In this document: positions 5,509-29,879 of the stretch, one piece after another
Numbering within the stretch: position 1 is the first letter of the stretch
Layout: every line of letters begins with the position of its first letter
Source: Burkholderiales bacterium
GTDB lineage: Bacteria; Pseudomonadota; Gammaproteobacteria; Burkholderiales; Burkholderiaceae_C
Direction: 5' to 3'
Length of the DNA: 64,000 nt
Assembly: GCA_003963115.1 (NCBI GenBank)
Contig: RXJQ01000020.1
Coordinates: 1 to 64,000, forward strand
Position numbers and translations under genes: made by a program
The notes under the pieces: model-generated
Told to the model about the DNA's origin: nothing
Database searches by the model: none
What the model saw: the letters and a program-made list of their open reading frames with translations, nothing else

Positions 5509-5533
5509 ATGGTCTTCTCTATTTTTTGTTGCC

Positions 5534-13082: not shown

Positions 13083-13100
13083 GGGCACGTCATGAGCACG

Positions 13101-14414
13101 TCATGGGCAATCGGGGTCGAAGTGCTTCTTCAGGCCCCGCCAGCACTGCGCGTAGTCGCCCTGGAGCAAGGGTGTCTGAAGCGCGAAGGCTGTGGGCCGC
13201 AGCACGCAGCGGGTCTCGAACATGAAGGCCATGGTGTCGGTGATGAGCTGAGGCTGCGTGGTGTCAGCATGGCTGGCCTTCTGGAAGGTATCGGCATCAG
13301 GCCCATGGCCGCTCATGCAGTTGTGCAGGCTGGCGCCACCGGGCACAAAGCCTGCGGCCTTGGCATCGTACTGGCCATGGATCAGGCCCATGAACTCGCT
13401 GGCCACATTGCGGTGGAACCATGGCGGCCTGAAGGTGTCGCGCATGGCCAGGATGCGCGGTGGGAAGATCACGAAGTCCAGCGCGTCCACGCCTGGCGTG
13501 TCGCTCACCGATTGCAGCACCGTGAAGATGGACGGATCGGGGTGGTCGAAGCTGATGGAACCGATGGTGTTGAAGCGCCGCAGGTCATAGCGCATGGGTA
13601 CGTGGTTGCCATGCCAGGCCACCACATCCAATGGCGAGTGGTCGATGCGGGCCTGCCACAGACGCCCCATGAACTTGGCGACAAGTTGAAAGTCGCCTTC
13701 CAAGTCTTCATAAGCGGCATGGGGTGCGAAAAAATCGCGCGGCTGGGCCAGGCCGTTGGCCCCGATTGGGCCCAGGTCCGGCAGGCGCAAGGGGGAGCCG
13801 AAGTTCTCGCACACATAGCCTCGTGCCGCGCCATCTGGCAGCTCGATGCGGCAACGCACGCCACGCGGGATCAGCGCGATCTCCTGCGGGCCGATCTCCA
13901 GCAGGCCAAACTCGGTATGCAGGCGCAATCGCCCTTGCTGCGGCACCAGCAGCAACTCACCATCGGCGTCATAGAAGTAGCGGGCAATCATCGAGCGGTT
14001 GGCCGCATAGAGATGGATGGCACAGCCGCTTTGGGCATCCGCGCTGCCGTTGCCCGCCATGGTGACGAGCCCGTCGACGAAATCAGTGGGCTGCTCGTCC
14101 GCAGGCAATGGCAAAGGGCCCCATCGCAGTTGATTGGGCGATGCAGGCACGGACGTGAAATCGCTGACCAGACCGGTGTGGCTCAAAGGTTCGAAAGGCC
14201 CGTGCATGGCGGCCGGCCGGATGCGGTAGAGCCATGAGCGGCGGTTGTCGGCGCGCGGTGCCGTGAAGGCCGTGCCCGAGATCTGCTCTGCATACAGGCC
14301 ATAGGGGCAACGCTGCGGTGAGTTGCGCCCCGTGGGCAAGGCGCCTGGCAGTGCTTCGCTGCTGAGCTGGTTGCCGAAGCCGCAGAGCGTGGTCTGGTCG
14401 TCCATGGATGTCAT
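13101..14414 (-). CDS. hmgA: Homogentisate 1,2-dioxygenase
   Basis: 437 aa, full length. It opens the ring of homogentisate with O2 to give 4-maleylacetoacetate. The non-haem iron ligands lie in [18 protein letters not shown] (His and Glu) and in [14 protein letters not shown] (His). The N-terminus ([16 protein letters not shown]) is typical. GAGG four bases before the ATG fixes the start, and only 6 bp separate it from hpd. Product release requires maleylacetoacetate isomerase, which is not encoded in this window. Confidence 0.97.
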
Positions 14415-14420
14415 CGCGCC

Positions 14421-15518
14421 TCACCCCTGCGTGGCCAGCACCCCGCGGCGCATCTGGTCCAGCTCGATCGATTCGAACAAGGCCTTGAAGTTGCCCTCGC
14501 CAAAGCCCTCATTGCCCATGCGCTGGATGAACTCGAAGAAGATGGGGCCGAGCTGGTTCTCGGTGAAGATCTGCAGCAGCAAGGCCTCTTTCGTGCCGTC
14601 GATGAGGATCTTGCGCCGCTTGAGTTCCGGCACGGACTGCCCATGGCCGGGAATGCGCTTGTCGATCAGCTCGTAGTAGGTATCGACCGTGTCCAGCATG
14701 CGCACGCCGCTGGTGCGCATGGCATCCACGGTGCGGCCAAGGTCCGAGCTGCTGAGCGCAATGTGCTGGATGCCCTCACCTTGGTAGGCATCCAGGTATT
14801 CCTGGATCTGCCCCGGCTTCTCGTTGCCCTCCTCGTTGATGGGAATGCGGATGAGGCCGCAAGGTGAGGTCATGGCCTTGGACTTCACGCCGGTCACCTG
14901 CCCTTCGATGTCGAAGTAGCGGATCTCGCGGAAGTTGAAGAAGCGCTGGTAGAACGCCGCCCATTCGGCCATGCGACCGCGGTGGACGTTATGCGTCAGG
15001 TGGTCGATGGCGACCAGGCCATGCCCAAGCGGGTTGGGGTGGGCACCCGGCAGAGGCTCGAAGTCCACGTCGTAGATGCCGATGTTGCCGATGGCACCGG
15101 GTGCCGCACCGTCCTTGCCTCGCCAGCGGTCCACCAAGTAGATCAGTGAATCGCCCACGCCCTTGATGGCGGGAATGTTGAGCTCCATCTGGCCGCTTTG
15201 CCGGTCCACGCCCCATGCCCCCAGGTCCAGGGCACGCTTGTAGGCCAGGGCCGCATCCTGCACGCGAAAGGCAATGGCACATACCGACGGCCCATGCAGC
15301 CGCGCAAAGCGTTGTCCAAAGGAATCGGGCTCGGCGTTGATGACGAAGTTGATCTGGCCCTGGCGGTAGAGCGTGACCTTCTTGTGCCGATGTCGAGCAA
15401 TGGGCACGAAGCCCATGTGCTCGAAAGTCAGGCCCATGGCCTGAGGATCAGGTGCGGCGAATTCGACGAACTCGAAGCCCGCCGTGCCCATCGGGTTGTC
15501 CCAGGTGTCGATTGCCAT
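14421..15518 (-). CDS. hpd: 4-hydroxyphenylpyruvate dioxygenase
   Basis: 365 aa with two vicinal-oxygen-chelate domains. It converts 4-hydroxyphenylpyruvate to homogentisate. The C-terminal Fe(II) ligands are seen in IDHLTHNV (His), GIQHIALSS (His) and FFEFIQR (Glu), and the C-terminal helix has the expected GFGEGNFKALFESIE signature. First gene of the hpd-hmgA-fahA unit. GAGGAG lies six bases before the ATG at 15518; it abuts an earlier in-frame ATG at 15524, so 15518 is preferred. Confidence 0.96.
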   Translation of the reverse strand: MAIDTWDNPMGTAGFEFVEFAAPDPQAMGLTFEHMGFVPIARHRHKKVTLYRQGQINFVINAEPDSFGQRFARLHGPSVCAIAFRVQDAALAYKRALDLGAWGVDRQSGQMELNIPAIKGVGDSLIYLVDRWRGKDGAAPGAIGNIGIYDVDFEPLPGAHPNPLGHGLVAIDHLTHNVHRGRMAEWAAFYQRFFNFREIRYFDIEGQVTGVKSKAMTSPCGLIRIPINEEGNEKPGQIQEYLDAYQGEGIQHIALSSSDLGRTVDAMRTSGVRMLDTVDTYYELIDKRIPGHGQSVPELKRRKILIDGTKEALLLQIFTENQLGPIFFEFIQRMGNEGFGEGNFKALFESIELDQMRRGVLATQG

Positions 15519-15720
15519 GTGCATCTCCTCGAACCACCAAGCGGTGCTGTAGCCAGTGTAGCCATCCGGCGGATGGTCCGGGGCCTCTGATTGCGGTCAT
15601 TCCTGACACCTGATTCAGCAATGGGCATCGGCATCCGGCTGATTGGGGGCTAACCCGCATCAATGCGTCGTGCCCAACAGGTCCGCTTTCAGGCTTTCGT
15701 CGATCATGACTGTGCCCCTT
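15519..15720 (-). promoter_or_regulatory. Probable promoter region of the hpd-hmgA-fahA operon
   Basis: This 202-bp spacer holds no gene. It contains the inverted repeat CCATCC-GGC-GGATGG (15562-15576), about 45 bp before the hpd start, a candidate operator or leader hairpin. No confident -10/-35 pair was found by eye. Confidence 0.35.
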
Positions 15721-16815
15721 TCAAAACAACTTGACGATACGCACCTGCTGGAAGGTGCCGTGCTTGGCATATTGAGAGTCGACCGTGCGCATGTTTTGCA
15801 GCGTCATCACCGCGTCCAGACCAGGGATGCGGGTCGTGAAAAACACACCTGCGTTGGTTGATGCATAGCGCATGGCCCCATAGCTGTTCCCGGAATCGTC
15901 CTGCACCTGACGCACCACCACGCTGTGCAGACCGATTGGCCCCAGTGGCGTCATGTAGGCCAGAGCCGCTTCAAGGCCGACCCAATTGCCGCTGCGCAAC
16001 TGGTTGTCTTCGTTGCGGCTGTTGATGCCCACGGTGAGCTTGGTCGCCAGGGACAGATCGGGGCGCGGTAGCCAGGCTACCTGCACGGCTGGCCGGAAAG
16101 TGTAGAAGTTGCCATAGCCAATGTCGGGCCCCGCCTTGGACTGATAGCGCCCTGTTGGCAACACGACCGATGCACCCACCAAGAGCCGCAACTGCTCGGT
16201 CGTCATCAACCAGCCGCCTTGCAGCTCAACGTCGCCCAGCCCGTCCACCTTGTCTGACTCGGCATCTGCGGAGCCATGGACCTGGCTCATGTAGTTCGCA
16301 TCGAACTGCTGCGTCACGGCGGTCTTTGCTGCCTGGGAGGGCAAGGTCGAGCTGGGCCAGTTCAGGGCCGGTGGCGTTGCGCTGGCGCTGAAGCGCTGAT
16401 CCTTCACGCCGTAGGGCACGTTGAGCAGCCACGCCAAGCGCCCACCACCAAAGCGTTCAGTCGTCACGTAGCCAATGCCCAGGTTGTACAGATCGAAAAG
16501 GCCTGTTGCGTTGACTTGTACATTGTTGGCGCCATAGCTTGGGTTGGCTGCGGACGGCAAGCCAGGCACATTGACCGTGCCCCCTGGTGTGGTCGTTTGC
16601 AAGGCATTGCCGTCACCGCCCGTCACCTTGGAAATCCTGACGTGGGTAGCCGCGATGCCGACAGCCAGGCCAGCCTGATCGGGTGGAACAAACATCTCAC
16701 CCCCCAAGGAGCCAGAGATGTTGTAGCGCACCTGAAAGCCTTCTGCCGCCAGGGCTGAATTCATCATGCATGCCGAGCCGATGAACAAGGCGCAGGCAAA
16801 GGGAAGCCGTTTCAT
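15721..16815 (-). CDS. MetA-pathway phenol degradation-type outer-membrane protein
   Basis: 364 aa. A signal peptide (ending near ALAAEG) precedes a beta-strand-rich protein with alternating aromatic residues and a terminal Phe (RIVKLF), typical of outer-membrane barrels. The pattern GLGDVELQGGWLM, ...VVLPTGRYQ... and late strand FTTRIPGLDAVMTLQNMRTVDSQ-like segments match the Phenol_MetA_deg family, often found beside aromatic catabolic genes and thought to help uptake of hydrophobic substrates. It lies downstream of and on the same strand as the amidohydrolase at 16935, so may be co-transcribed. The ATG at 16815 has AGGAG eight bases upstream; 16819-16821 is an alternative ATG too close to that site. 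Confidence 0.8.
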   Translation of the reverse strand: MKRLPFACALFIGSACMMNSALAAEGFQVRYNISGSLGGEMFVPPDQAGLAVGIAATHVRISKVTGGDGNALQTTTPGGTVNVPGLPSAANPSYGANNVQVNATGLFDLYNLGIGYVTTERFGGGRLAWLLNVPYGVKDQRFSASATPPALNWPSSTLPSQAAKTAVTQQFDANYMSQVHGSADAESDKVDGLGDVELQGGWLMTTEQLRLLVGASVVLPTGRYQSKAGPDIGYGNFYTFRPAVQVAWLPRPDLSLATKLTVGINSRNEDNQLRSGNWVGLEAALAYMTPLGPIGLHSVVVRQVQDDSGNSYGAMRYASTNAGVFFTTRIPGLDAVMTLQNMRTVDSQYAKHGTFQQVRIVKLF

Positions 16816-16934
16816 GGACATGTCTCCTGTCTAGGTCTGAACAATGGGCGTCGAACGGGCATGGGCAGGCCCAGCCTCGGGCCGCATCGACGCGGCCGTG
16901 GCGATGTTCGAGATGAGTGAAGTGCGGGAAGCGC

Positions 16935-18011
16935 TTAGCGGTTACGCGCCTGATCTGCGAGCGCGATCACCGATCGGATGGCCGCATGTTTGATGCGGTC
17001 GCGCAGGCTGGGTGCTTGGGGCTTGGCAATGCTGGCCACATACTCTTGGTCCAGTGCAAGCCGTGGGAACAAGGCCAGAGCGTTGTCTCGGTTGATGGCG
17101 GCCTGCTCTTGTGCGGTGAACACTTTTAACTCGGCAAGTTGCTTGGTCTGCAAGCCGGTCACAGGCTCAGGCGCAAATGGAAAGTCACTGCCAAACAGAA
17201 TCTTGGACGGCCCGACCAGTTCATTGAGCGCGGCCATGGCAAATGGTGATGGCGACAAGGCCGTGTCAAACCAGAAGCGCTTCAGATAGTTCAGCACGCC
17301 CTGTGGCGCCTTGTCCGCATACTGCGGCAGCATGTTCGCCAGTGACAGCCGCCACGCAACGTAGGGCGTGAATCCGCCGGCATGGGCCAGTATCCAGCGT
17401 ATGCGCGGGTAGCGCTCCATCGTGCCCGACAAGATGAGATTGGTAGCGGCACGCGTGGTGTCGCACAGGAACTCGACCAGGAAGCCTGGCGTGTTCAACC
17501 TCAACGTGGTGCTGGTGGCGTGCAGATTGGGATGCACAAAGACCGTGGCATCCCGCTTGTCCAGCTCGGCCATCAGCTCATTGAAGCGTGCATCGCCAAG
17601 GAAATAGCCGTCTGAGCTACCCAACAGCACGATCCCGTCGGCCTTCAGCTGGTCCAGCGCACGGATCGCTTCAGCACAAGCGGCTTCCGTGAAGGGCATG
17701 GGCAAAAGGGCAAAGAAGCCGAAGCGATCTGGGTGACGTCGTGCTACATCCACGCAGAAGTCATTGCAGGCCTGAGCCAGGGACACGGCCCGGCTGGCAT
17801 TGCCAAAGTAGACGCCCGGCGCGGACAAGGACAACAAGGCGGTTTGAATGCCCTGCAGATCCATGACGTCCAGCGAGCGCCTGGGCGACCATTCCGGCAA
17901 CGGCGCCCCCGCCACGAGCGACTGCCCCTGGTCCTTCATCGCCCGGGCAAACGCTGGTGGCACGACGTGGTGGTGAACATCAATGCGGAAAGGTGAAGTA
18001 GGCGATTTCAT
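16935..18011 (-). CDS. ACMSD-like amidohydrolase/decarboxylase
   Basis: 358 aa TIM-barrel metal-dependent hydrolase. The N-terminal HHH motif (IDVHHHVVPP) replaces the usual HxH metal pair; ATVFVHPN (His), WILAHAGGFTPY (His) and ILFGSDFPFAP (Asp) supply the other metal and catalytic residues. Family members decarboxylate aromatic acids or ring-cleavage products (ACMSD, gamma-resorcylate or 5-carboxyvanillate decarboxylases) or hydrate or hydrolyse them. The exact substrate cannot be read. It is a paralogue of the gene at 26920 but cytoplasmic (no signal peptide). Divergent from the AraC-type regulator across 105 bp. The start at 18011 has no strong ribosome site. Confidence 0.82.
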   Translation of the reverse strand: MKSPTSPFRIDVHHHVVPPAFARAMKDQGQSLVAGAPLPEWSPRRSLDVMDLQGIQTALLSLSAPGVYFGNASRAVSLAQACNDFCVDVARRHPDRFGFFALLPMPFTEAACAEAIRALDQLKADGIVLLGSSDGYFLGDARFNELMAELDKRDATVFVHPNLHATSTTLRLNTPGFLVEFLCDTTRAATNLILSGTMERYPRIRWILAHAGGFTPYVAWRLSLANMLPQYADKAPQGVLNYLKRFWFDTALSPSPFAMAALNELVGPSKILFGSDFPFAPEPVTGLQTKQLAELKVFTAQEQAAINRDNALALFPRLALDQEYVASIAKPQAPSLRDRIKHAAIRSVIALADQARNR

Positions 18012-18116
18012 GGTCAAGCAATTCAAGTGGCTGATGCACATTGTCAAAATCGGGCGCATGATCTGCATGTCATTTCAGGTCACCGATGCGGATTCCCGCA
18101 CTGTTCAGGGCGAGCC

Positions 18117-19151
18117 ATGATTTCCTATCCCGATTCAGTCCCCGGGTTTCACCTGAATGGCCTCGTCACTTGCCTGCGCGCCGAGGGCGTGCCGTGTGAC
18201 CAGATCCTGGAGGCGCATCGCGTATCGCCACAAGCACTGGCGTTGCCCGGGGCACGCGTGCCCCGCGCGGTCATGGCCGCGGTGCTATTGAGCCTGCGTG
18301 CGTACACAGGCCGAGACGATCTGGGCTTTGAGATGGGCATGCAGACCGATCTGACAAAGGCACCCCTGCTGGGCCAACTCTTCCTGAGCTCGCGCACCTT
18401 GGGTGACAGCCTCCAGCGCGTGGCACCCTATATGCCGCTGCTGACACCGTCATTCAAGATGACGTGCGCCTACCGCGATGACCAGCAGCTCATCGTGAGC
18501 ATGAAGCCTGTTCGGCCCATACCTTATGACATCGCCAAGCTGGCGCTGGAGACCTTCGTGGTGGGTGCCTGCCGGACGATGCAACGGTTGCTGCCTCATC
18601 ACGCGATTGCGCTGCAAGCGCTGGTCAGTTGGCCCCGGCCTACCCATCACCATCGCTACGCGGCCCTGCCACATACCCAGATCACCTATCAAGCCGATCT
18701 GAACGAGATGAGTGCCTGTCTGGTGCTGGCCAAGGACGTAGCGGCCACTGCACTGCCGCAGGCCAATGAGGCGCTCAGCGCTGAACTGCGAGATGCCTGT
18801 GCCCGCCAACTGCAGTTGCTCGAGGGGCTGCACCCCTGGGCCGAGTGGATCTCGCACATCCTCGATGTGGTGGAGGACCACCTGCCCAGTCTGGCCGAGC
18901 TGGCTGGCCTGATGGGCATTTCCGTTCGCACCCTCACCAGGCACCTGGAAACCGAAGGCGTCAGTTTCCGGGCATTGGCCATGGACATCCGCCACCGGCG
19001 TGCCTGTGCCTTGCTGAGCGGCACGGACATGAGCATCTCGGAGATCGCCCGCATCCTGGGCTACACCGACAGCGCCAACTTTTCCAGAGCGTTCAAGCGT
19101 TCGGCCGGCTTGTCACCGCAGCATTTCCGGGAGCGAATGGGAACTGGCTGA
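18117..19151 (+). CDS. AraC-family transcriptional regulator (Arabinose_bd-type N-terminus)
   Basis: 344 aa. The N-terminal about 200 residues resemble the effector domain of OruR-like AraC regulators, with the LRAYTGRDDLGFEMGMQ region. The C-terminal about 85 residues hold two helix-turn-helix units (LAELAGLMGISVRTLTRHLE and ISEIARILGYTDSANFSRAF). Placed between the divergent amidohydrolase and the meta-cleavage operon, it is the obvious candidate activator of either or both; the effector is unknown. CAGGGCGAG precedes the ATG. An in-frame upstream extension to 18027 would use up most of the promoter spacer. Confidence 0.88.
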   Translation: MISYPDSVPGFHLNGLVTCLRAEGVPCDQILEAHRVSPQALALPGARVPRAVMAAVLLSLRAYTGRDDLGFEMGMQTDLTKAPLLGQLFLSSRTLGDSLQRVAPYMPLLTPSFKMTCAYRDDQQLIVSMKPVRPIPYDIAKLALETFVVGACRTMQRLLPHHAIALQALVSWPRPTHHHRYAALPHTQITYQADLNEMSACLVLAKDVAATALPQANEALSAELRDACARQLQLLEGLHPWAEWISHILDVVEDHLPSLAELAGLMGISVRTLTRHLETEGVSFRALAMDIRHRRACALLSGTDMSISEIARILGYTDSANFSRAFKRSAGLSPQHFRERMGTG

Positions 19152-19192: not shown

Positions 19193-19221
19193 TTGACCAA
19201 TTTGAACACATGTGTTCAAAT
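19193..19221 (+). promoter_or_regulatory. Promoter with 22-bp palindromic operator before the meta-cleavage operon
   Basis: Perfect palindrome at 19200-19221 with arms ATTTGAACA and TGTTCAAAT around CATG. It lies between and overlaps a candidate -35 TTGACC (19193-19198) and a -10 TCAAAT (19216-19221) with a 17-bp spacer. This placement suggests that a dimeric repressor blocks RNA polymerase. The same motif recurs at 26850-26871. Confidence 0.7.
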
Positions 19222-19249
19222 AAAGTCATACAGATGCATTTTCGACTCA

Positions 19250-20044
19250 ATGAGCTCACCCAAACCACCCCATACTGTGTTGGCCGCCGCCGAAGCCATA
19301 CGCAAAGCTCGTTCGAGCATGGCACCCATCGCCCCGATCTCCGAGACCTTCGGCATCACAGGGCTGGAGGAGGCCTATGAGGTGGCTCGCGTCAACACCT
19401 TGGCCGCGCTGGACAGCGGTCGGGTGATCGCTGGCAAGAAGATCGGTCTGACGTCCAAGGCTGTTCAGCAGCAACTGGGCGTGGATCGCCCCGACTACGG
19501 CGTGTTGTTCACGGACATGGAATGCCGCGACGGCGACGAACTGCCCATGGCCAGACTCATGCAGCCCAAGGCCGAGGGCGAGGTGGCATTCGTGGTGGGC
19601 AAAGACCTGAGCGATGCAGACTTGACGTGGTCCCGCTTCCTGCTGGGCATCGAGTACGCGCTGCCCGCGTTAGAAGTGGTCGACAGCGCCATCGCGAACT
19701 GGAAGATCACGCTGGCCGACACCGTGGCCGACAACGCCTCTTGCGGCCTGTATGTATTGGGCACGGAGCCACGTCGCATCACGGACTTCTCGCTGCAGAC
19801 ACTGGGCATGGATGCTCGTCGCAACGGCGAAGTGGTTTCCGTTGGGTCAGGCGTGGCCTGCCTAGGGCACCCCTTGAAAGCGGCATTCTGGCTCGCCCAG
19901 ACCATGGCTGGCCTGGGGCAGCCCTTGCGTGCCGGCGATCTGATTTTGTCCGGGGCACTGGGCCCCATGTTCACCTTCAACTCAGGCGATGAGCTGGCCC
20001 TGGATCTTGGCCCGCTTGGTCGCTTGAAGTGCCGAGCCATCTAA
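19250..20044 (+). CDS. 2-oxopent-4-enoate hydratase / 4-oxalocrotonate decarboxylase family enzyme (MhpD-like)
   Basis: 264 aa. The family signature KIGLTS, then PKAEGEVAFVVGKDL (metal-binding Glu), GIEYALPALEVVDS and SGALGPMF identifies the fumarylacetoacetate-hydrolase-fold hydratases and decarboxylases of meta-cleavage pathways. With an aldolase and acetaldehyde dehydrogenase next in line, hydration of 2-hydroxypenta-2,4-dienoate to 4-hydroxy-2-oxovalerate is the most likely reaction; decarboxylation of 4-oxalocrotonate cannot be ruled out. First gene of the operon. The ATG at 19250 lacks a clear Shine-Dalgarno; an upstream in-frame start (19193) would overlap the promoter. Confidence 0.87.
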   Translation: MSSPKPPHTVLAAAEAIRKARSSMAPIAPISETFGITGLEEAYEVARVNTLAALDSGRVIAGKKIGLTSKAVQQQLGVDRPDYGVLFTDMECRDGDELPMARLMQPKAEGEVAFVVGKDLSDADLTWSRFLLGIEYALPALEVVDSAIANWKITLADTVADNASCGLYVLGTEPRRITDFSLQTLGMDARRNGEVVSVGSGVACLGHPLKAAFWLAQTMAGLGQPLRAGDLILSGALGPMFTFNSGDELALDLGPLGRLKCRAI

Positions 20045-20139
20045 GACCGCAGCAAAGCGCCTTCCCTGCCTTGCAAGCCGGATGGCCCCTCCAGGCCAGC
20101 CCCTGGCGTGCCCGAATCACCGATTGAAAGAGGACCACC

Positions 20140-21093
20140 GTGACCCACAAGCTCAAAGCTGCCATCGTCGGCAGCGGCAACATCGGCACCGACCTGATGA
20201 TCAAGATCCTGCGCCATGGACGCCATATCGAAGTGGCCGCCATGGTGGGCATTGATCCTGAATCGGATGGCCTGGCCCGCGCAGCGCGCCTGGGCGTGGC
20301 CACCACGCATGAAGGCATCGTGGGTCTGGGCCGACTGCCCGTCTTCAAGGACATCGACATCGTCTTCGACGCCACCTCGGCCGGCGCCCACGTCAAGAAC
20401 GACGCCTTCGTGCGGATGCTCAAGCCGAGCATCCGCTGCATCGACCTGACGCCTGCTGCCATCGGCCCTTACTGCATCCCCGTGGTCAATGGGCAAGATC
20501 ATCTTGACGCACTCAACGTCAACATGGTCACTTGCGGCGGGCAGGCCACCATCCCGATGGTGGCGGCCGTCAACCGCGTGGCCAAGGTGCATTACGGCGA
20601 GATCATCGCCTCCATTTCCAGCAAGAGCGCCGGCCCCGGCACCCGCGCCAACATCGACGAGTTCACCGAAACCACGTCCAAGGCCATCGAGGCAGTAGGT
20701 GGCGCCACCAAGGGCAAGGCCATCATCGTCCTCAACCCGGCCGAGCCGCCATTGATCATGCGCGACACGGTCTACACCTTGAGCGAGGTGGCCGATGAAG
20801 ACGCGATTGCCGCCTCGGTGGACACCATGGTGGCTGCGGTCAAGCAGTACGTGCCTGGTTACCAGCTCAAGCAACGCGTGCAGTTCGACCGCATCGAAGC
20901 GAACGCGCCCTTGAACATTCCTGGCGTGGGCCCCCGCATGAGCGGCCTGAAGACCTCGATCTTCCTGGAAGTCGAAGGCGCGGCCCACTACCTGCCCGCC
21001 TATGCCGGCAACCTCGACATCATGACCAGCGCCGCCCTGGCCACGGCCGAGAAGATGGCCGAGCGCATCTTGGCTCGCCTGACCACCGCCTGA
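20140..21093 (+). CDS. mhpF: Acetaldehyde dehydrogenase (acylating)
   Basis: 317 aa, the usual length for MhpF/DmpF/BphJ. It oxidises acetaldehyde with CoA and NAD+ to acetyl-CoA. The Rossmann motif [12 protein letters not shown] opens the protein; the catalytic Cys lies in [11 protein letters not shown], and [15 protein letters not shown] is also typical. It forms a channelling complex with the aldolase encoded 24 bp downstream. The start is a GTG at 20140, preceded by AGAGGA. Confidence 0.96.
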
Positions 21094-21117
21094 CCCCGCC
21101 TCACGCAAGGAGCCCCC

Positions 21118-22179
21118 ATGCAAACATCCAAGAAGCTCTATATCTCCGACGTGACGCTGCGCGACGGCAGCCACGCCATCCGACACCAGTATTCGGTCGA
21201 ACAGGCCAGGCAGATCGCCAAGGCCCTGGACGAGGCCAGGGTCGACTCCATCGAGGTCGCCCACGGAGACGGCCTCAACGGCTCCAGCTTCAACTATGGC
21301 TTTGGTGCACACACCGATCTGGAATGGATCGAAGCCGTGGCCAGCGTGGTCAAGCATGCCAAGATCGCCACGCTGCTGCTGCCCGGCATCGGCACCGTGC
21401 ACGACCTCAAGGCCGCATACGAGGCTGGCGCGCGCATCGTGCGCGTGGCCACGCACTGCACCGAAGCCGATGTCTCGCGCCAACACATCGAGTACGCGCG
21501 CCACCTGGGCATGGAAGCCGTGGGCTTTCTGATGATGAGCCACATGCAGACCCCGCAGGGCCTGGCGCAGCAAGCCAAGCTGATGGAAAGCTATGGCGCT
21601 ACCTGCTGCTATGTGGTGGACTCAGGCGGCGCACTGAGCATGAATGACGTGCGTGACCGCTTCAAGGCCTTCAAGGACACACTCCAGCCCGAAACCGAGA
21701 CCGGCATCCATGCGCACCACAACCTGAGCCTGGGCGTGGCCAACTCCATCGTGGCCGTGGAAGAAGGCTGTGACCGCATCGATGCCAGCCTGGCCGGCAT
21801 GGGCGCGGGTGCGGGCAATGCCCCGCTGGAGGTGTTCATCGCGGCCGCAAGCAGGCTGGGCTGGAACCACGGCACCGACCTGTACAAGCTGATGGATGCC
21901 GCCGACGACATCGTGCGCCCCTTGCAGGACCGCCCTGTGCGCGTGGACCGCGAGACGCTGGCGCTGGGCTATGCCGGCGTGTACTCCAGCTTCCTGCGTC
22001 ACTCGGAGGTGGCAGCCAGGAAATATGGTCTGAAGGCCGTGGACATCCTGGTGGAACTGGGGTGCCGGCGCATGGTGGGCGGCCAGGAAGACATGATCGT
22101 CGACGTTGCGCTGGACCTGCTCAAACAGGCAGAGCATGAGCGTACACACGCCACACCCAACATGAGCGAGGCTGGCTGA
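21118..22179 (+). CDS. mhpE: 4-hydroxy-2-oxovalerate aldolase
   Basis: 353 aa. It cleaves 4-hydroxy-2-oxovalerate to pyruvate and acetaldehyde and passes the aldehyde to MhpF. The N-terminal [10 protein letters not shown] motif holds the catalytic Arg and metal-binding Asp; the metal-binding His pair lies in [15 protein letters not shown]. The C-terminal communication domain (about 270-345) is complete. AAGGAG six bases before the ATG supports the start. Five bases separate it from the following SDR. Confidence 0.97.
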
Positions 22180-22184
22180 GCACC

Positions 22185-22985
22185 ATGGCCACGCCACTGC
22201 GTCAGACCATCCTGATCACCGGTGCCAGCTCGGGTCTGGGTGAAGGCATGGCCAAGGTCTTCGCCGCGCGCGGCCGCGATCTGGTGCTTTGCGCCAGAAG
22301 ACTGGACAGGCTGGAAAACCTCGCCAGCACATTGCGCCGGGCCTACCCCCGGCAGCGGTTCCTTGTCCGGGCACTGGATGTCAATGATGCACAAGCTGTC
22401 TGGCAGGTCTTCCTGGACGCCCACCAGACCTTGGGCCGCGTCGACCGCATCGTCGTCAACGCCGGTCGCGGTGGCGCATCCAGGCTGGGCGAAGGCCAGG
22501 TCGGCGACGCCATGGATGTGGCCCGCACCAACTTCCTGGGTGCGCTGGCCCAGTGCGATGCGGCCATGCGGCTCTTCCGCCAGCAAGGCTTTGGTCATCT
22601 GGTCACCCTGTCGTCTGTCAGCGCCGTGCGCGGCATGCCTGGCGCCATGGCCACCTACTCCGCCTCCAAGGCCGCCGTGGCGGTGCTGTCCGAGGCCCTG
22701 CGCAATGAAATGAAAGCGGCCAACTCCCCCATTCGCATCACCACGCTGATGCCGGGCTTCATCCACACGGACCTCAACGCCCATCAGGCCCACAAGCCCT
22801 TCGCGGTCGATGTCGAGACGGGCAGCAGGGCACTGGTGAGGGCCATCGAGCAGGAGCCCGGCGTCGCCTACGTGCCCGGCTGGCCCTGGGCCTTGCTGGC
22901 GCGCCTCCTCAAGTGGCTGCCCGCCAGCCAGCTGCCTGGCGCACAAGCGTCGATCACCACCGCCGCGCCTTCTTCCACAAATTGA
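22185..22985 (+). CDS. Short-chain dehydrogenase/reductase of unknown substrate
   Basis: 266 aa classical SDR. The cofactor motif TGASSGLGEGMA (TGxxxGxG) is near residue 13, NAG follows at about 92, and the catalytic Ser-Tyr-Lys is seen in LSSVSA and YSASK. CARRLDR after beta-2 suggests NADP(H) preference. Embedded between the aldolase (5 bp) and the C-C hydrolase in the same operon. Standard meta-cleavage pathways do not need an SDR here; it could act on a side chain or a hydroxylated precursor. No membrane anchor is apparent, although the C-terminal 35 residues are moderately hydrophobic. Confidence 0.9.
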   Translation: MATPLRQTILITGASSGLGEGMAKVFAARGRDLVLCARRLDRLENLASTLRRAYPRQRFLVRALDVNDAQAVWQVFLDAHQTLGRVDRIVVNAGRGGASRLGEGQVGDAMDVARTNFLGALAQCDAAMRLFRQQGFGHLVTLSSVSAVRGMPGAMATYSASKAAVAVLSEALRNEMKAANSPIRITTLMPGFIHTDLNAHQAHKPFAVDVETGSRALVRAIEQEPGVAYVPGWPWALLARLLKWLPASQLPGAQASITTAAPSSTN

Positions 22986-23001
22986 TGTCGAGCAGACAAA
23001 C

Positions 23002-23889
23002 ATGAGCACATCCCATCTTCTGAGCACCATGCAGACCCGGTATGTCCAGGTCGGGTCACGCAAGATCTTCCTGGCCGAATTGGGCGCGGGCCCCGTGGTG
23101 CTGATGCTGCATGGCGGCGGCCCAGGCGCTTCCGGTGTGTCCAACTACAGCCGCAACATCGAAGCACTGGCCCAGCACTTCCACGTGATCGTGCCCGACA
23201 TGCCCGGCTATGGGCGCTCCACCAAGGGCGTCAACCGCAACGACCCCTTTGGCGATCTGGCCACCAGCGTGATCGCCATGCTCGACACCCTGGGCATCCG
23301 GCGCGTTCACGTGATCGGCAACTCGCTGGGCGGTGCCTGCGGCCTGCGCATGGCGATCGAGCGCCCGGACCTCATTGGCCGGCTCGTGTTGATGGGGCCC
23401 GGCGGCGTGGACACCACCCGAGGCCTGCCCACGCCCGGCCTCAAGCGGCTGCTCACCTACTACAAGGGCGAGGGCCCCACGCTGGAGAAGATCACGGCCT
23501 TCATCCGCGGGGACCTGGTCTATGACGGCAGCCAGATTCCAGAGTCGGTCATCCGCGAACGCTTCGAATCCAGCAAGGACCCCGAGGTGGTGGCCGCCCC
23601 ACCGCTTCTGGGGCCAGCCGGTATCCCCAACTTCAAGAACCTGGACTTCACCCGCGACCCTCGCCTGAGCCAGGTCACCAACCCCACGCTCGTGCTGTGG
23701 GGCACCGAAGACAAGGTCAACCGCCCCAGCGGCGCCCACTCCTTGCAACGACGCATGCCCAACTGCGACGTCTACATGTTCAGCAAGACCGGTCACTGGG
23801 TCCAGTGGGAGCGCGCGGAGGAATTCAACGCCGCAGTCAAGAGCTTCTTGGAACAGGACCAGGTGTATCTGGCCAAGCAGGCAGCTTGA
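23002..23889 (+). CDS. Meta-cleavage product C-C bond hydrolase (MhpC/BphD/TesD-like)
   Basis: 295 aa alpha/beta hydrolase. The catalytic triad is Ser108 (GNSLGG), Asp237 (GTEDKVN) and His265 (TGHWVQWE). The oxyanion motif HGGGPGASG and the family block GNSLGGACGLRMAIE are characteristic of 2-hydroxy-6-oxo-dienoate hydrolases that split ring-fission products into 2-hydroxypentadienoate and a carboxylic acid. This joins the extradiol dioxygenase (next gene) to the hydratase. The acyl part of the substrate, hence the parent aromatic, is not determined. No strong ribosome site; an internal ATG at codon 10 is an alternative. Confidence 0.9.
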   Translation: MSTSHLLSTMQTRYVQVGSRKIFLAELGAGPVVLMLHGGGPGASGVSNYSRNIEALAQHFHVIVPDMPGYGRSTKGVNRNDPFGDLATSVIAMLDTLGIRRVHVIGNSLGGACGLRMAIERPDLIGRLVLMGPGGVDTTRGLPTPGLKRLLTYYKGEGPTLEKITAFIRGDLVYDGSQIPESVIRERFESSKDPEVVAAPPLLGPAGIPNFKNLDFTRDPRLSQVTNPTLVLWGTEDKVNRPSGAHSLQRRMPNCDVYMFSKTGHWVQWERAEEFNAAVKSFLEQDQVYLAKQAA

Positions 23890-23913
23890 ACACCGCAAAG
23901 AGGAGACAAAAAG

Positions 23914-24909
23914 ATGAACAAGGTCAGCACACCTGATCTGTTTGGCAAGGTGCGCATGGGCTACCTCGTGGCCGAGTCAAACAAGCTGGATGAATGGAAG
24001 ACATTCGCCCAGGAAGGACTGGGCCTGCATGTGGAGCAGCCCAGCGCGGACTTGCTGGTGTTCCGTGTCGATGACCATCAGCGCCGCATCATGATCCGCA
24101 AGGGCCCGGCCGAGGACGTCGTCGCCATGGGCTGGGAACTCGACGACCAGGCCGCACTGGACACGGCCCTGTCACGCCTGAAGCTGCGAGGCGCGGACAT
24201 CGCCCTCGCCCAGGCGAACGACGCAGCCCAGCATGGCGTGACCTCGCTGTGGCGTGTGCTGGGCCCCAAGAAGCTGACCATCGAGCTCTACACCACGCCG
24301 CTGCTGACGCAAGCCCCCCTGCAGATGAAGGCATCGGGCTTCGTCACGGGGGCGGCCGGTCTGGGCCACGTGGCCATCACCACGCGCGAGCCCGAAGCCA
24401 TGCTGGCGTTCTGGCAAGAGGTGTTCGACGCACGACTGTCCGATGAGATCGAGGACCGCATCGATGGTGTCAACCTGGACTTCTCCTTCCTGCGCCTCAA
24501 CGAGCGCCATCACTCGATCGCCACGGCCTCGACCCGTGGCGTGCGCCTCAACCCCTTGCGCACCACCATTCACCACATGAACCTGCAGGCCGCCAGCCTG
24601 GAGGATGTCACGCAAGGCTATCTGCGTTGCAAGGCCATGGGCTACGAGATCGCCAACAGCATCGGCCAGCACCCCAACGACAAGGAGTTGTCCTTCTACG
24701 TGGTCACGCCGTCCGGGTTCGAGGTGGAACTGGGCTGGAACCCCATCTCCGTGAAGGAGGAAGGCTGGCAGCCCCAACGCTACAGAGGCATCAGCCTGTG
24801 GGGTCATCGCCCGGAGAACCTGACCATGGCCAACCGCCTGGGCCGATTCAAGAACGGCCTGTCCTCTCTCGCCCGCAGCGAATACACCGTTCAAGGATCC
24901 CGCACATGA
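23914..24909 (+). CDS. Type I (VOC) extradiol ring-cleavage dioxygenase
   Basis: 331 aa, two vicinal-oxygen-chelate halves as in BphC and other two-domain catechol extradiol enzymes. Probable Fe(II) ligands are His152 (GLGHVAITT), His220 or His221 (TIHHMNLQ) and Glu272 (FEVELGW); His253 in GQHPNDKELSFYVVTPSGFE matches the active-site acid/base His. It should open a catechol next to its two hydroxyls. The classical MhpB of hydroxyphenylpropionate pathways is an unrelated LigB-type enzyme, so this set is a different assembly. AGAGGAG eight bases upstream supports the start. Its TGA overlaps the hydroxylase ATG (ATGA). Confidence 0.92.
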   Translation: MNKVSTPDLFGKVRMGYLVAESNKLDEWKTFAQEGLGLHVEQPSADLLVFRVDDHQRRIMIRKGPAEDVVAMGWELDDQAALDTALSRLKLRGADIALAQANDAAQHGVTSLWRVLGPKKLTIELYTTPLLTQAPLQMKASGFVTGAAGLGHVAITTREPEAMLAFWQEVFDARLSDEIEDRIDGVNLDFSFLRLNERHHSIATASTRGVRLNPLRTTIHHMNLQAASLEDVTQGYLRCKAMGYEIANSIGQHPNDKELSFYVVTPSGFEVELGWNPISVKEEGWQPQRYRGISLWGHRPENLTMANRLGRFKNGLSSLARSEYTVQGSRT

Positions 24910-26681
24910 ACGCCATCCCCAGCGCATTCAGGACACCCCGCATGTCGGAGCCAGGCCAGGTGGACGTGGCCATCGTGGGCCTGGGCCCGACCGGCCTGGT
25001 CCTCGCCCACATGCTGGGCATCCGTGGCCACAAGGTGGTCGTGCTCGAGAAGGAGCCTGTCTTCTACGGCAATGCCCGCGCGGTCTATACCGATGACGAA
25101 TGCATGCGCATCTTCCAGTCCATCGGCGTGGCCGAGGAACTGCAAGCCAAGATGATCGTGGAGACGCCCGTCCAGTTCGTCCGCCCGGATGGCAAGGTCA
25201 TGGCCCAGTACAGGCCGATGAAGCGACCCTTTGGCTGGCCCGTGGTCAACTTCTTCTACCAGCCGTATCTGGAGACCACGCTGTCGGAGACCCTCTCCCG
25301 CTATCCCAATGTGGAGGTCTGGCGAGGTCGCGAGCTGGTCGACTTCTCGCAGGATGGTCAGGGTGTGAAGCTCGTCCATCAAGCCACGCAGGAGGCCCGC
25401 TTCACGGAACATGGCGACGCGCGCCAGGCTACCGGCAGCGGCGACCTGGACGTGCGCACGCTGCAGGCCAAGTACATGGTCGGATGCGATGGCGGCCGCA
25501 GCATCGTGCGCACACGGCTGGGCATCGACATGACGGGCAAGAACTTTCCCGAGCCCTGGCTGGTGGTGGACCTGGAGCGCAAGCCCGGCCAGGACGGCCT
25601 GCGCCACCTGCCCTATTTCAACTTCGTGGTCGACCCCAAGCTGCCCGTGGTCAGTTGTACCCAGCCCGATCGCTTCCATCGCTTCGAGTTCATGCTGATG
25701 CCAGGCGAGACCAAGGAGAACATGGAAAAGCCCGAAACCGTTCGGCACTACCTCTCCAAGTACATCAACCCGGATCAGTTCGAGGTCAAGCGTCGCCTCG
25801 TCTATACCTTCAACGCCCTGATGGCCAATGCATGGCGCCGCGATCGCATCCTGCTGGCCGGTGACGCGGCCCACATGACGCCGCAGTTCATGGGCCAGGG
25901 CGCCAGCTCCGGCATCCGCGACGCCTACAACCTGGGTTGGAAGCTCGACCTGGTTCTGCGCGGCATCTCTGGCGAGCGGATCCTCGACAGCTACGAGCAG
26001 GAACGCCGCGGCCACGCACAGTCGATGATCGACGTCTCGGTCTTGCTCAAGGACGTCGTCTCCATGACCAACCCACTGGGCACCCTCCTGCGCGATGGCG
26101 TGATCAAGCTCATGCAGCTCATCCCACCGTTGAGGCGTTGGACGCAGGAAGGCGGCTTCAAGCCCATGCCCATCTGCAAGCGCGGCAGCTATCTGGGCCT
26201 GCCTCGCAAGGGATTGAGGGGACCGGAAGGCGCTCTGGCACCTCAGCCCGAGATACGCCGCTTCGATGGACACCGTCAATTGCTGGACGACCTGCTGGGG
26301 CAGGGCTTCTCGCTGGTAGGCCTGGGCTTAGACCCCTCGGCGCACCTTGACGCGACATCCCGCCAGACACTGGACACGCTGGGCACGCGCATGGTCACGC
26401 TCTACCCATACTGCGGCCGTCCACAAGGTTTGAACGGCATCGAGCGCAACGTCCGGTCCGGGGTGGTGGAAGTGGAGGATATCCACGACCTGATGGTGGC
26501 CTGGTTCCGCAAGGCCGGCCTGGCCGAGCAAGGGGTCGCCGTGTTGCGTCCCGACCGCTTCGCGTTCGCCGTCGTCAGCCCTGCGGAGCTGAACAAGGCG
26601 GTATCCGAACTGGCCCGCCAGATGGCTTTGGGCAAACAAGGCAAAGGCACCGTCGTGCCCTTGACCCAGAAAGCGGCGTGA
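24906..26681 (+). CDS. FAD-dependent aromatic hydroxylase (MhpA-like)
   Basis: 591 aa group A flavoprotein monooxygenase. The dinucleotide fold VAIVGLGPTGLVLAHML (GxGxxG) and Glu of VVVLEKE bind FAD; VGCDGGRSIVR is the DG motif; ILLAGDAAHMTPQFMGQGASSGIRDAYNL is the GD motif. The thioredoxin-like C-terminal region is present. Such enzymes use NAD(P)H and O2 to hydroxylate a phenol to a catechol or quinol, which would feed the dioxygenase encoded just upstream, to which it is translationally coupled by a 4-bp overlap. About 35 residues longer than MhpA, partly at the N-terminus; an ATG 36 bp in (24942) is an alternative start. Last gene of the operon. Confidence 0.92.
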   Translation: MNAIPSAFRTPRMSEPGQVDVAIVGLGPTGLVLAHMLGIRGHKVVVLEKEPVFYGNARAVYTDDECMRIFQSIGVAEELQAKMIVETPVQFVRPDGKVMAQYRPMKRPFGWPVVNFFYQPYLETTLSETLSRYPNVEVWRGRELVDFSQDGQGVKLVHQATQEARFTEHGDARQATGSGDLDVRTLQAKYMVGCDGGRSIVRTRLGIDMTGKNFPEPWLVVDLERKPGQDGLRHLPYFNFVVDPKLPVVSCTQPDRFHRFEFMLMPGETKENMEKPETVRHYLSKYINPDQFEVKRRLVYTFNALMANAWRRDRILLAGDAAHMTPQFMGQGASSGIRDAYNLGWKLDLVLRGISGERILDSYEQERRGHAQSMIDVSVLLKDVVSMTNPLGTLLRDGVIKLMQLIPPLRRWTQEGGFKPMPICKRGSYLGLPRKGLRGPEGALAPQPEIRRFDGHRQLLDDLLGQGFSLVGLGLDPSAHLDATSRQTLDTLGTRMVTLYPYCGRPQGLNGIERNVRSGVVEVEDIHDLMVAWFRKAGLAEQGVAVLRPDRFAFAVVSPAELNKAVSELARQMALGKQGKGTVVPLTQKAA

Positions 26682-26841
26682 ACCTCAGGCCAGCGCTTGA
26701 TGGGGTAGCTTGTTGTGGCGGGTGCCGCGTCGTGGATACCTTTCTGGGCCGGTGTCGGAGCGGCCACGCCGTCCCCTGAGGCGGTGAGATGGGACATGTG
26801 TTCACTCAGATTGAATTCACCCCCATCAAGGGTAAACATAA

Positions 26842-26871
26842 TTGATCTCAATTGAACATAATTGTTCAATT
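26842..26871 (+). promoter_or_regulatory. Promoter with second copy of the 22-bp operator
   Basis: Inverted repeat at 26850-26871 with arms AATTGAACA and TGTTCAATT around TAAT, sharing the core TTGAACA-N4-TGTTCAA with the site at 19200-19221. A candidate -35 TTGATC (26842-26847) and -10 TTCAAT (26865-26870), 17 bp apart, bracket it in nearly the same register. A direct repeat AACATAATTG (26835-26844 and 26855-26864) is superimposed, 20 bp apart. The remainder of 26682-26919 holds no gene. Confidence 0.65.
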
Positions 26872-26919: not shown

Positions 26920-28041
26920 ATGCGTCAACGAGATGATCTGATCGGCCACGCGACGGCAAGACGCCAACTCCTCAAGCAGGCCTTCAGCGTCGGCGCGGCA
27001 TCGGCCGGCGCGGTGGCCAGCGGCCTGCCTTCTTTGAGCCAGGCGGCCACCTCGCCGAGTGGCAACTTCCGCATTGACGTGCACTGCCACCACATCCCGG
27101 AGTTCTACCGCCACTCACTGTGGGCCCACGGCATCTTCACCGCTGGCGGCATCCCTCTGCCCTCGTGGTCGCCCAGTGCTGCCGTGGACTTCATGGACCG
27201 CTACGGCATCCAGGTGCAGGTGGTATCGATCTCCGAACCGGGCGTGACTTACTTGCCCACGCCCGCTGAACGGCTGAGCATGGCCCGTCAACTCAATGAC
27301 TACACGCGCGATACCCTGGTCCAGACATCAGACGCCACACTCGCCAATCGCTTTGGCGGCTTTGCCGTGATGCCACTGGGTGATCCCAAGAACCCGGTTG
27401 ACATCTTCAATGCCTCGGCAGAAGCCGAGCGCGCGCTCACCAGCCTGCAACTGGACGGCATCGGCCTGTTCAGCAGCTACGGCGGCATCTACCTGGGCGA
27501 CCCTTGCTTCGAGCCACTGATGGCCACGCTCAACACGCTGGGTGCCATGGTCTTCATCCACCCGGTCACACCCAAGGCTCCACCGGACCTGGGCTTGCCA
27601 TCCTTCCTGTTCGAGTTCCCCTTCGACACCACGCGCGCAGCCGTCAACCTGCTCTACAAGGGCGTGTTCAGCCGCTATCCACGGATACGCTGGCTGCTGG
27701 CCCACGCAGGTGGGACCGTGCCCTACCTCTCTTACCGCTCGGCACTGCTCAAACTGCATTTCGACCCGACCACCAGTGTCTACAAGGATCTGTACTACGA
27801 CACCGCGCTGTCCTCTGCACCGCCATCCATGGCGGCCGTTCGGCAAATCACTGACGTCAGCCACGTGATGTTCGCAACCGACTGGCCCTTCTCCAGCCTG
27901 GTCTACCTGACCAAGCCAGCGGGCGACCCCGCCACAGAGTTGAACCTGAGCTTCAACACCGGCGAGCGCCTGATGGTGGATCGCCGCAATGCCCTGGCTC
28001 AATTCCCCACGCTGGCCGCGCGTTTGGGTGTCACAGTCTGA
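26920..28041 (+). CDS. ACMSD-like amidohydrolase with twin-arginine-type N-terminus
   Basis: 373 aa, paralogous to the gene at 16935. The barrel carries IDVHCHHIPE (HxH-type metal pair), VFIHPVTP (His), WLLAHAGGTVPY (His) and VMFATDWPFSS (Asp). Unlike the paralogue, it has an about 45-residue N-terminal extension with ARRQLLKQAF followed by an Ala/Gly-rich hydrophobic stretch ending at SLSQAATSP, which looks like a Tat signal and suggests a periplasmic enzyme. Decarboxylation or hydrolysis of an aromatic acid or derivative is likely; the substrate is unknown. AAAGGA seven bases before the ATG fixes the start. It has its own operator-bearing promoter. Confidence 0.83.
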   Translation: MRQRDDLIGHATARRQLLKQAFSVGAASAGAVASGLPSLSQAATSPSGNFRIDVHCHHIPEFYRHSLWAHGIFTAGGIPLPSWSPSAAVDFMDRYGIQVQVVSISEPGVTYLPTPAERLSMARQLNDYTRDTLVQTSDATLANRFGGFAVMPLGDPKNPVDIFNASAEAERALTSLQLDGIGLFSSYGGIYLGDPCFEPLMATLNTLGAMVFIHPVTPKAPPDLGLPSFLFEFPFDTTRAAVNLLYKGVFSRYPRIRWLLAHAGGTVPYLSYRSALLKLHFDPTTSVYKDLYYDTALSSAPPSMAAVRQITDVSHVMFATDWPFSSLVYLTKPAGDPATELNLSFNTGERLMVDRRNALAQFPTLAARLGVTV

Positions 28042-28113: not shown

Positions 28114-29652
28114 TCACAGCTTGAACACCGCCACCGTTTCCGCCAGTGCGGCGGCCTGGTGCTTGAGGCTCTCGGCCGCCGCGGCAGACTCTTCGACCAG
28201 GGCCGCGTTCTGCTGTGTCACCTGATCGAGCTGGTTCACCGCGTCACCGATCTGGCCGATGCCCCGGCTCTGCTCGTCACTGGCACTGGTGATCTCGCCG
28301 ATCAAGCCGGCCACCTTCTGCACCTGGGCCACCACGTCTTCCATGGTCTTGCCTGCCGCATCGACCAAACGGGCACCGCCTTCGACCTTGTCGACGCTCT
28401 CGCCGATCAGTGACTTGATCTCCTTGGCGGCCTGCGCACTGCGCTGCGCAAGCGAACGCACCTCGCCGGCCACCACGGCAAAGCCGCGGCCCTGCTCACC
28501 TGCCCGGGCCGCTTCAACGGCGGCATTGAGCGCCAGGATATTGGTCTGGAAGGCAATGCCGTCGATCACACCGATGATGTCGGCCACCTTGCGAGAACTG
28601 GACGTGATGCCTTCCATCGTGGCCACCACCTGGCCCACGACCGAGCCGCCGTCCACGGCCACGACCGAGGCATTGCGTGCCAGTTCCGTGGCCTCGCGGG
28701 CCGTGTCGGCGTTGTGCTTGACGGTGGAGGTCAACTGCTCCATGGACGCGGCCGTCTGCTGCAGATTGCTGGCCTGCTCTTCAGTACGTTGCGACAGGTC
28801 GGCATTGCCCATGGCGATCTGCGCCGAACCTGTCGCGATGGAATCCGAACTGGCGCGCACCGAATGCACGATGCCGCGCAGCGAGCACACCATCTTGTCC
28901 ATCGCCGCCATCAGCAGGCCGATCTCGTCACGCGAGTCGACCACGATCTGCGTGCGCAAATCACCGTTGGCGATCGACTCCGCAGCCTGCTGCGCGCGTC
29001 GAACCGGTGCAACGATGGAGCGCGTCAAAGCCCAAGCCAGACCCACACCAAAGACCAATGCCAGCACCGTTCCCACCGCCAGTGCCATGATGCCCTGCAC
29101 CGCTGCCGCATCGGCCTCGGCCCGGCGACTTTCCATGTGCTTGCGCTGGTACTCGGCCAGGCGCTCAACAGCCGCCAAGTACTGCTGCGCTACAGGGAAC
29201 ACGTCGGCCAACACCGCTGCGCCCACGTTCTCGCCCGCTTCCTTGCGCTTGAGCAGGGCATTGCGCCTGGCCTGGTAGGCATCGCGCTGCTTGGAGATGT
29301 CCTGGATCAGCTGCTTTTGCTCTTCAGACACCGCCAGCTCGTTCATGCGCTTGATGCGCCCCGTGTTCGCGCTGATCGTGGTCTGCATCTCTGCCTTGAC
29401 GCGGCTGAGCACGGTCGGGTCGGACGCAAAGAACATCACCCAGGTTCTGGCCGTATTCGATTCGATGGAACGCGACCAGCGCTGGGTCAAGACAAGCAAC
29501 TCGGCATCATCCGAGCCCAGCTTGTCCGTGATGGCCTTCACCGCATGGATACGCTCGATGCCCACGGCCGCGGCAATCAGACTCAGCAATATCAAGGCCG
29601 CAAAGCCCATCCCCAGCCGGGACCCCAGTTTCATGTCCTTGAAGACGCTCAT
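28114..29652 (-). CDS. Methyl-accepting chemotaxis protein (four-helix-bundle sensor)
   Basis: 512 aa. TM1 (about 12-32), a helical periplasmic 4HB_MCP-type sensor (about 35-190), TM2 (about 193-213), HAMP, then a signalling domain with the [20 protein letters not shown] hairpin. It ends at FKL without the CheR-tethering pentapeptide. The ligand is unknown; its position after the aromatic catabolic cluster makes aromatic chemotaxis a speculation only. The ATG at 29652 has GGAG ten bases upstream; an in-frame ATG at 29706 has no ribosome site. Confidence 0.9.
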
Positions 29653-29879
29653 GACCACACGCTCCGCAAAGTGATGCTGGATGGCGCCGACGCCCTGTTG
29701 TGACATGGTTTGCGGCGCAGATTATTCGGGCGTTCACCACACCCTGACGCCATTTCGACCAAGGAAACTCAAACTTGAAACCGAAGTGGTTTGGCCCGCC
29801 GGATGCATGTTCTCAACAACGGCATACCGAGAATTGAATGGCCCGAGCCATCACCAGTAGTGCGTAGCGCGAATTTATG

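What the first reader, a model, noticed from the sequence alone, without database searches (positions are those of the whole stretch)
19193..26871. Twin 22-bp operators frame the meta-cleavage operon
The inverted repeats at 19200-19221 and 26850-26871 share the core TTGAACA-N4-TGTTCAA, are both 22 bp long and each sits between candidate -35 and -10 elements 17 bp apart. One controls the operon 19250-26681, the other the amidohydrolase at 26920. Such placement implies one dimeric repressor controlling both units. The local AraC-type protein usually binds direct repeats, so the repressor may be encoded elsewhere. A half-site CATGTGTTCA lies at about 26795-26804.
Basis: partly seen in the sequence, partly recalled or inferred. 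Interest (0 to 1): 0.72.

Follow-up and report, generated by a model that had tools for sequence, protein, structure and literature searches.

The report
RolR-like TetR repressor's scattered operators
Two matching DNA control sites around an aromatic-ring-breaking operon belong to a set of about four, and sequence evidence points to one TetR-type repressor encoded elsewhere, a relative of the resorcinol sensor RolR, as the protein that binds them.

Summary
TTGAACA-N4-TGTTCAA is exact at window 19202 and 26852 and at one other place in the 5.38-Mb genome, with no further 1-mismatch site (about 0.002 exact sites expected). The third site (contig C21) lies between a flavin-reductase gene and a divergent TetR gene; a fourth, 2-mismatch site precedes an HsaA-like monooxygenase/extradiol dioxygenase pair there. 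That TetR is the likely repressor. Of 78 relatives, 49 have the palindrome with at most 1 mismatch upstream (reversed pattern 0 of 78). Of 20 loci pairing a relative with a homologous operon, 18 have it before the operon. In 299 family genomes, 4 have the operon's hydrolase and those 4 have the TetR. Closest known protein: RolR, by sequence and fold. Binding, inducer and substrate are untested. It is a new member of a known kind, with a predicted operator for a widespread RolR-like subfamily.

The parts
19200..19221 (.). Operator 1: perfect 22-bp palindrome, exact core TTGAACACATGTGTTCAA at 19202-19219, before the meta-cleavage operon
   Evidence: matrix score 37.7 bits
19193..19221 (+). Candidate promoter of the operon: TTGACC 19193-19198, 17-bp spacer, TCAAAT 19216-19221; the operator fills the spacer and covers the -10 box
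   Evidence: 9 of 12 consensus matches; same geometry at relatives' TetR promoters
19250..26681 (+). Seven same-strand genes: 2-oxopentenoate hydratase-like 19250-20044, acetaldehyde dehydrogenase 20140-21093, 4-hydroxy-2-oxovalerate aldolase 21118-22179, SDR 22185-22985, C-C hydrolase-like 23002-23889, extradiol dioxygenase-like 23914-24909, MhpA-like FAD hydroxylase 24906-26681
   Evidence: co-transcription inferred from order and spacing
26850..26871 (.). Operator 2: 9-bp inverted arms, exact core TTGAACATAATTGTTCAA at 26852-26869, before the amidohydrolase gene
   Evidence: matrix score 37.4 bits
26842..26870 (+). Candidate promoter of the amidohydrolase gene: TTGATC 26842-26847, 17-bp spacer, TTCAAT 26865-26870 (alternative TAAACA-18-CATAAT, 26833-26862)
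   Evidence: 8 of 12; alternative (9 of 12)
26920..28041 (+). Amidohydrolase-2 family protein, 373 residues; nearest solved chains include ring-acid decarboxylases
18111..19151 (+). AraC-type regulator gene upstream of the operon; considered and not favoured as the binder of the palindromes
   Evidence: absent from all 78 TetR loci at E up to 1e-15

Best explanation
The two palindromes are operators of a TetR-family, RolR-like repressor encoded on another contig of the same genome (C21, L004:14269-14889 minus strand, 206 residues from a GTG start). A dimer is expected to bind TTGAACA-N4-TGTTCAA, whose half-site centres lie 11 bp apart, and to block the promoter, because the operator fills the -35/-10 spacer and covers the -10 box. 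Its regulon here is about four sites: the meta-cleavage operon, the amidohydrolase, the flavin reductase beside the repressor gene, and the HsaA-like monooxygenase with a second extradiol dioxygenase. A phenolic compound of the pathway, perhaps of resorcinol type, would release it. Shown: the sites, their rarity, and their association with this TetR lineage and with homologous operons. Inferred: binding, repression, inducer, and co-transcription of the operon.
For: Three exact sites in the genome and none at 1 mismatch; the third lies between the TetR gene and a flavin-reductase gene. A fourth site (2 mismatches, 31.1 bits) lies 52 bp before the HsaA-like gene; the ten other 2-mismatch sites score 20.2 bits or less. 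Of 78 loci with TetR relatives, 49 have a site with at most 1 mismatch and 57 with at most 2 within -500 to +100 of the match start; reversed pattern 0 of 78 at 2 or fewer; 1,560 shuffles 4 at two, none at one or fewer. Of 20 loci with a relative and a homologous operon, 18 have a site with at most 1 mismatch before the hydrolase gene. Family genomes: motif in 7 of 299, TetR orthologue in 9 of 299, both in 6 (Fisher P 6e-10); hydrolase orthologue in 4 of 299, and those 4 hold the TetR (P 4e-7). Promoter geometry at 55 TetR-proximal sites. Closest solved protein RolR by sequence and by fold.
Against: No binding or expression data. 21 of 78 relatives lack a site with at most 2 mismatches upstream, with no clear change in the recognition helix. 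G201 has an exact motif but no TetR orthologue. In G283 the one exact site lies 7 kb from the TetR gene and no site with up to 3 mismatches lies near its hydrolase gene. The loci are not independent (for instance G084 and L066 are the same sequence). Three more TetR paralogues (E below 1e-20) exist in the genome. The 18 operon-side sites do not show the promoter geometry as a group.
Confidence: 0.87

Rival explanations
1. One of the paralogous TetR proteins of the genome (C21:29457, C21:33486 or C78:64341), not the one beside site 3, binds these sites.
For: The C21:29457 gene lies on the far side of site 4 from the HsaA-like gene.
Against: Of 11 lesser TetR loci (29-35% identity; three from this genome, one from G283 and seven from other family genomes) none has a site with at most 2 mismatches except the one next to site 4; 5 of the 9 orthologue loci of similar length do. 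The motif follows the orthologue across genomes.
Confidence: 0.06
2. The local AraC-type protein (18111-19151) binds the palindromes.
For: It is adjacent to the operon and on the same strand.
Against: No relative of it (E up to 1e-15) in any of the 78 loci with TetR relatives. It may still act as an additional activator at another site.
Confidence: 0.04
3. The palindromes are chance or structural repeats without a regulator.
For: At 3 mismatches, 2 hits in the window are within shuffle expectation, and promoter-like hexamers are no commoner than in shuffles.
Against: Exact-match rarity in the genome and the cross-genome association with one TetR lineage.
Confidence: 0.01

Closest known systems
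RolR of Corynebacterium glutamicum (TetR-type resorcinol repressor; PDB 3aqs, 3aqt)
   Same: Best solved match by sequence (E 1.4e-22 single, 3.7e-29 profile) and the top four chains by fold. Represses aromatic catabolism. The key inducer contact Asp149 is kept (Asp in 66 of 78 rows). The RolR operator as quoted in PMC9210681 (passages) has the same TGAAC/GTTCA half-site.
   Different: About 30% identity. Asp94, Arg145 and Arg148 are not kept. The quoted RolR operator is 29 bp, TGAAC-N4-GTTCA plus a second repeat, read by a pair of dimers, lies at +66 to +94 and works as a roadblock; here the spacing is N6 between the same half-sites and the operator lies in the promoter. Neighbours encode extradiol, not resorcinol-type, enzymes.
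mhp 3-(3-hydroxyphenyl)propionate pathway
   Same: MhpA-like hydroxylase, extradiol dioxygenase, hydrolase, hydratase, acetaldehyde dehydrogenase and aldolase.
   Different: MhpA-like protein 474.9 bits against a cut-off of 546 for the best equivalog model. E. coli MhpA is about 37% identical. The IclR-type regulator MhpR is known from memory; not tested here.
Steroid hsaABCD enzymes
   Same: HsaA-, HsaB-, HsaC- and HsaD-like proteins in the predicted regulon.
   Different: Every one is below its equivalog cut-off: HsaA 380 of 450, HsaB 143 of 230, HsaC 163 and 233 of 450, HsaD 230 of 400.
hcdABC of Pseudomonas mandelii 7HK4 (PMC6222606, passages seen)
   Same: Flavin hydroxylase, extradiol dioxygenase and hydrolase, there acting on a substituted resorcinol, 3-(2,4-dihydroxyphenyl)propionate.
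   Different: The passages that I saw name no regulator; sequences were not compared.

Membership tests
TetR family of repressors | TetR_N helix-turn-helix domain | tested here: met
   PF00440 43.1 bits, cut-off 24
TetR family of repressors | All-helical TetR fold | tested here: met
   model pLDDT 91.2; 148 PDB matches at E up to 0.001; the 50 rows shown are, by their titles, nearly all TetR-type regulators
TetR family of repressors | Binds a palindromic operator and is released by a ligand | not testable with these tools
   only association of motif and gene
RolR (same regulator) | Four-residue resorcinol motif Asp94-Arg145-Arg148-Asp149 | tested here: not met
   only Asp149 kept; the others are Thr, Gln and Ile in this protein and vary in relatives (motif from PMC3086911 passages)
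RolR (same regulator) | Operator TGAAC-N4-GTTCA | tested here: not met
   half-site same, spacing here N6
mhp pathway operon | MhpA equivalog score | tested here: not met
   474.9 against 546; the subfamily model PRK06183.1-3 is met, 439 against 390
hsa steroid pathway | HsaA, HsaB, HsaC and HsaD equivalog scores | tested here: not met
   380 against 450, 143 against 230, 163 and 233 against 450, 230 against 400

The most novel reading that the evidence does not exclude
This TetR lineage is an undescribed, RolR-related subfamily with a conserved operator (TTGAACA-N4-TGTTCAA, set in the promoter spacer) across alpha-, beta- and gammaproteobacteria and myxobacteria. It governs two different kinds of aromatic cluster (a C-C-hydrolase type and a fumarylacetoacetate-hydrolase/CoA-ligase type). 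In the window organism its regulon is dispersed and couples a one-component and a two-component hydroxylase to one unknown, possibly resorcinol-type, signal.
Probability: 0.5. Interest if true: 0.55.

Novelty: new member of a known kind. Interest (0 to 1): 0.5.

Why it matters
It joins a regulator, an operator and about four target units in one testable scheme, and gives a search motif for a widespread TetR lineage of aromatic catabolism on which my paper searches found nothing. Finding its inducer would point to the substrate of a pathway whose ring-attacking enzymes fall below the specific enzyme models tried, and could give a biosensor.

Tried and rejected
The local AraC protein and paralogous TetRs were considered and ranked low. 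The ten other 2-mismatch genome sites score 20.2 bits or less and were set aside. A weak 3-mismatch place 45 bp before the TetR start (L004:14934) might be a decayed autoregulatory site but is not among the top matrix scores of its locus. The EdcR operator (PMC8700777, passages) and the G/CAAAC-N2-4-GTTTG/C motif (PMC10304680, passages) do not match. Comparing recognition helices of TetRs with and without sites showed no clear difference. The promoter and terminator consensus scan was uninformative. Plasmid annotation gave no named pathway. PMC9662819 (passages) added nothing on the operator. Paper searches showed no paper on this operator or TetR lineage in the listings, which were capped at 10-20 rows; most subscription papers are not held, so this is weak evidence of absence.

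Full report
Observation. Site 1 is a perfect 22-bp palindrome; site 2 has 9-bp arms around four unsymmetric bases. The core TTGAACA-N4-TGTTCAA is exact in both, and no other place in the window comes within three mismatches. In the whole genome (5.38 Mb, 108 contigs, 99.6% complete) the core is exact at three places and nothing else is within one mismatch; the reversed pattern gives none. At two mismatches there are 14 places in all against 3 for the reversed pattern. From window composition 0.002 exact sites would be expected.

The third and fourth sites. The third exact site is on contig C21. It ends 9 or 24 bases before the two possible ATG starts of a flavin-reductase gene (HsaB-like, 143 bits, below the equivalog cut-off of 230), and a TetR-family gene points the other way. 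The conserved part of the TetR protein and a GGGAG sequence before a GTG codon suggest a start at L004:14889, giving 206 residues (my reading). A fourth site, TTAAACACAAGTGTTCAT, lies 52 bp before an HsaA-like monooxygenase gene (380 bits, cut-off 450) that is followed by an extradiol dioxygenase-like gene. Scored with a matrix from relatives' sites, the four sites reach 37.9 (site 3), 37.7, 37.4 and 31.1 bits; the ten other 2-mismatch sites of the genome reach 20.2 at most.

Association with the TetR lineage. In 299 genomes of the family the exact motif is in 7, the TetR orthologue (E below 1e-55; the next match is 3e-24) in 9, and both in 6 (Fisher P 6e-10). The three with TetR but no exact motif have a 1-mismatch site just upstream (G166, G107) or a 2-mismatch site 4.6 kb away (G054); G201 has the motif without the TetR. 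A scan of named genomes found 135 relatives and kept 80, giving 78 distinct loci. From -500 to +100 of the match start the best site has 0 mismatches in 32, 1 in 17, 2 in 8, 3 in 8 and 4 or more in 13 of 78. The reversed pattern never has 2 or fewer; 1,560 shuffles have 4 with two and none with fewer. These loci are not independent: several Pseudomonas are close kin, and L066 is the same sequence as G084.

Association with the operon. I gave 81 loci (the 78 named ones, one Cupriavidus plasmid and two family genomes) to a search for homologues of the window's hydrolase, dioxygenase and hydroxylase. Twenty hold all three together with a TetR relative, hydrolase matches under 55% identity being left out: 17 of the 78, plus the other three. 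Eighteen have a site with at most one mismatch before the hydrolase gene, 19 with at most two; L116 has none. In three Acinetobacter loci (L095, L126, L129) the operon start and its site lie some 5-8 kb from the TetR gene. In the family 4 of 299 genomes hold the hydrolase orthologue (E below 1e-95), and those 4 hold the TetR (P 4e-7). In the other three the two genes lie within 1 kb, but in one of them, G283, no site with up to three mismatches lies near the hydrolase gene; its exact site is 7 kb away. So in the window organism regulator and operon have come apart: they lie on different contigs, at unknown distance. Within the genus the hydroxylase (E below 1e-150) is in 1 of 42 genomes, so the operon is a patchy possession. 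Two genus members (G327, G328) are the same sequences as named loci L054 and L055, titled Aquabacterium sp., so the window organism is probably an Aquabacterium (inference). In Crenobacter (L127) one locus holds homologues of the flavin reductase, the HsaA-like and the second dioxygenase genes, sites with 1 and 0 mismatches beside them, and a TetR relative with a 2-mismatch site, which supports reading sites 3 and 4 as one regulon.

How it works. At sites 1, 2 and 4 a -35-like hexamer starts 9-10 bases before the core, with a 17-bp spacer and a -10-like hexamer made by the right arm; site 3 does not show this. In 55 TetR-proximal sites of relatives exactly this placement averages 3.9 of 6 and 3.8 of 6 matches, 7.7 of 12, against 5.7 for the next best placement. 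This is stronger than the single-site matches, which a consensus scan does not separate from chance. The 18 operon-side sites do not show it as a group (5.2 at that placement, 5.7 at best). I infer promoter occlusion and, in most relatives, autoregulation. Half-site centres 11 bp apart suit the 34.9 A helix separation reported for DNA-free RolR (passage).

Closest known. RolR is the best PDB match by sequence and by fold of a confident model (pLDDT 91.2). Of the four RolR residues that hold resorcinol only Asp149 is kept (Asp in 66 of 78 rows; one relative with a short reading was left out of that alignment). RolR's operator shares the TGAAC/GTTCA half-site but with N4 as quoted in PMC9210681, here N6. 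So it is RolR-like, not RolR. A resorcinol-type inducer is a guess from that aspartate, from the decarboxylase-like amidohydrolase and from the remark in PMC3086911 that RolR homologues may sense resorcinol-like compounds (passage).

What remains open. Binding, transcription starts, inducer, substrate, co-transcription, and whether the AraC protein is a second regulator. Relatives without a site (21 of 78 at two mismatches) show that the pairing is not universal.

Noticed in passing
L004:14269-19082 and L005:239-8108 (own contig C21): A second aromatic island: HsaA/HsaB-like monooxygenase, extradiol dioxygenase, FMN oxidoreductase, AMP-binding ligase, FAA-hydrolase, glyoxalase-fold dioxygenase-like protein, second MhpA-like FAD hydroxylase and two more TetR genes. 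Similar ligase/hydrolase/hydroxylase sets sit beside TetR relatives in many of the 78 loci.
   Followed up: partly
window 28114-29706 (-): Methyl-accepting chemotaxis protein gene convergent with the amidohydrolase; chemotaxis genes also lie near TetR relatives in L066, L127 and L132. Possible chemotaxis link; such genes are common.
   Followed up: no
window 26-8330: Large repeat protein ORF followed by a LapD-like GGDEF/EAL protein, a LapG-like peptidase C93 protein and, by recall, a TolC-like ORF: looks like a Lap-type adhesin system.
   Followed up: no
window 11757-15524 (-): Homogentisate pathway genes: fumarylacetoacetase, homogentisate dioxygenase and 4-hydroxyphenylpyruvate dioxygenase, each above its model cut-off.
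   Followed up: no
window 15721-18068 (-): Second amidohydrolase gene and an outer-membrane MetA-pathway protein gene divergent from the AraC gene, with no operator within 3 mismatches; perhaps under AraC control.
   Followed up: no
G323:C193:40397 and 40431 (genus member): Two 1-mismatch sites 34 bp apart (TTGAACA-N4-TATTCAA and TTGAACA-N4-TATTCAA type) in a genome of the same genus; not explained.
   Followed up: no
L051:9968 (G201): Exact motif in a family genome without the TetR orthologue, between predicted ORFs; not explained.
   Followed up: no
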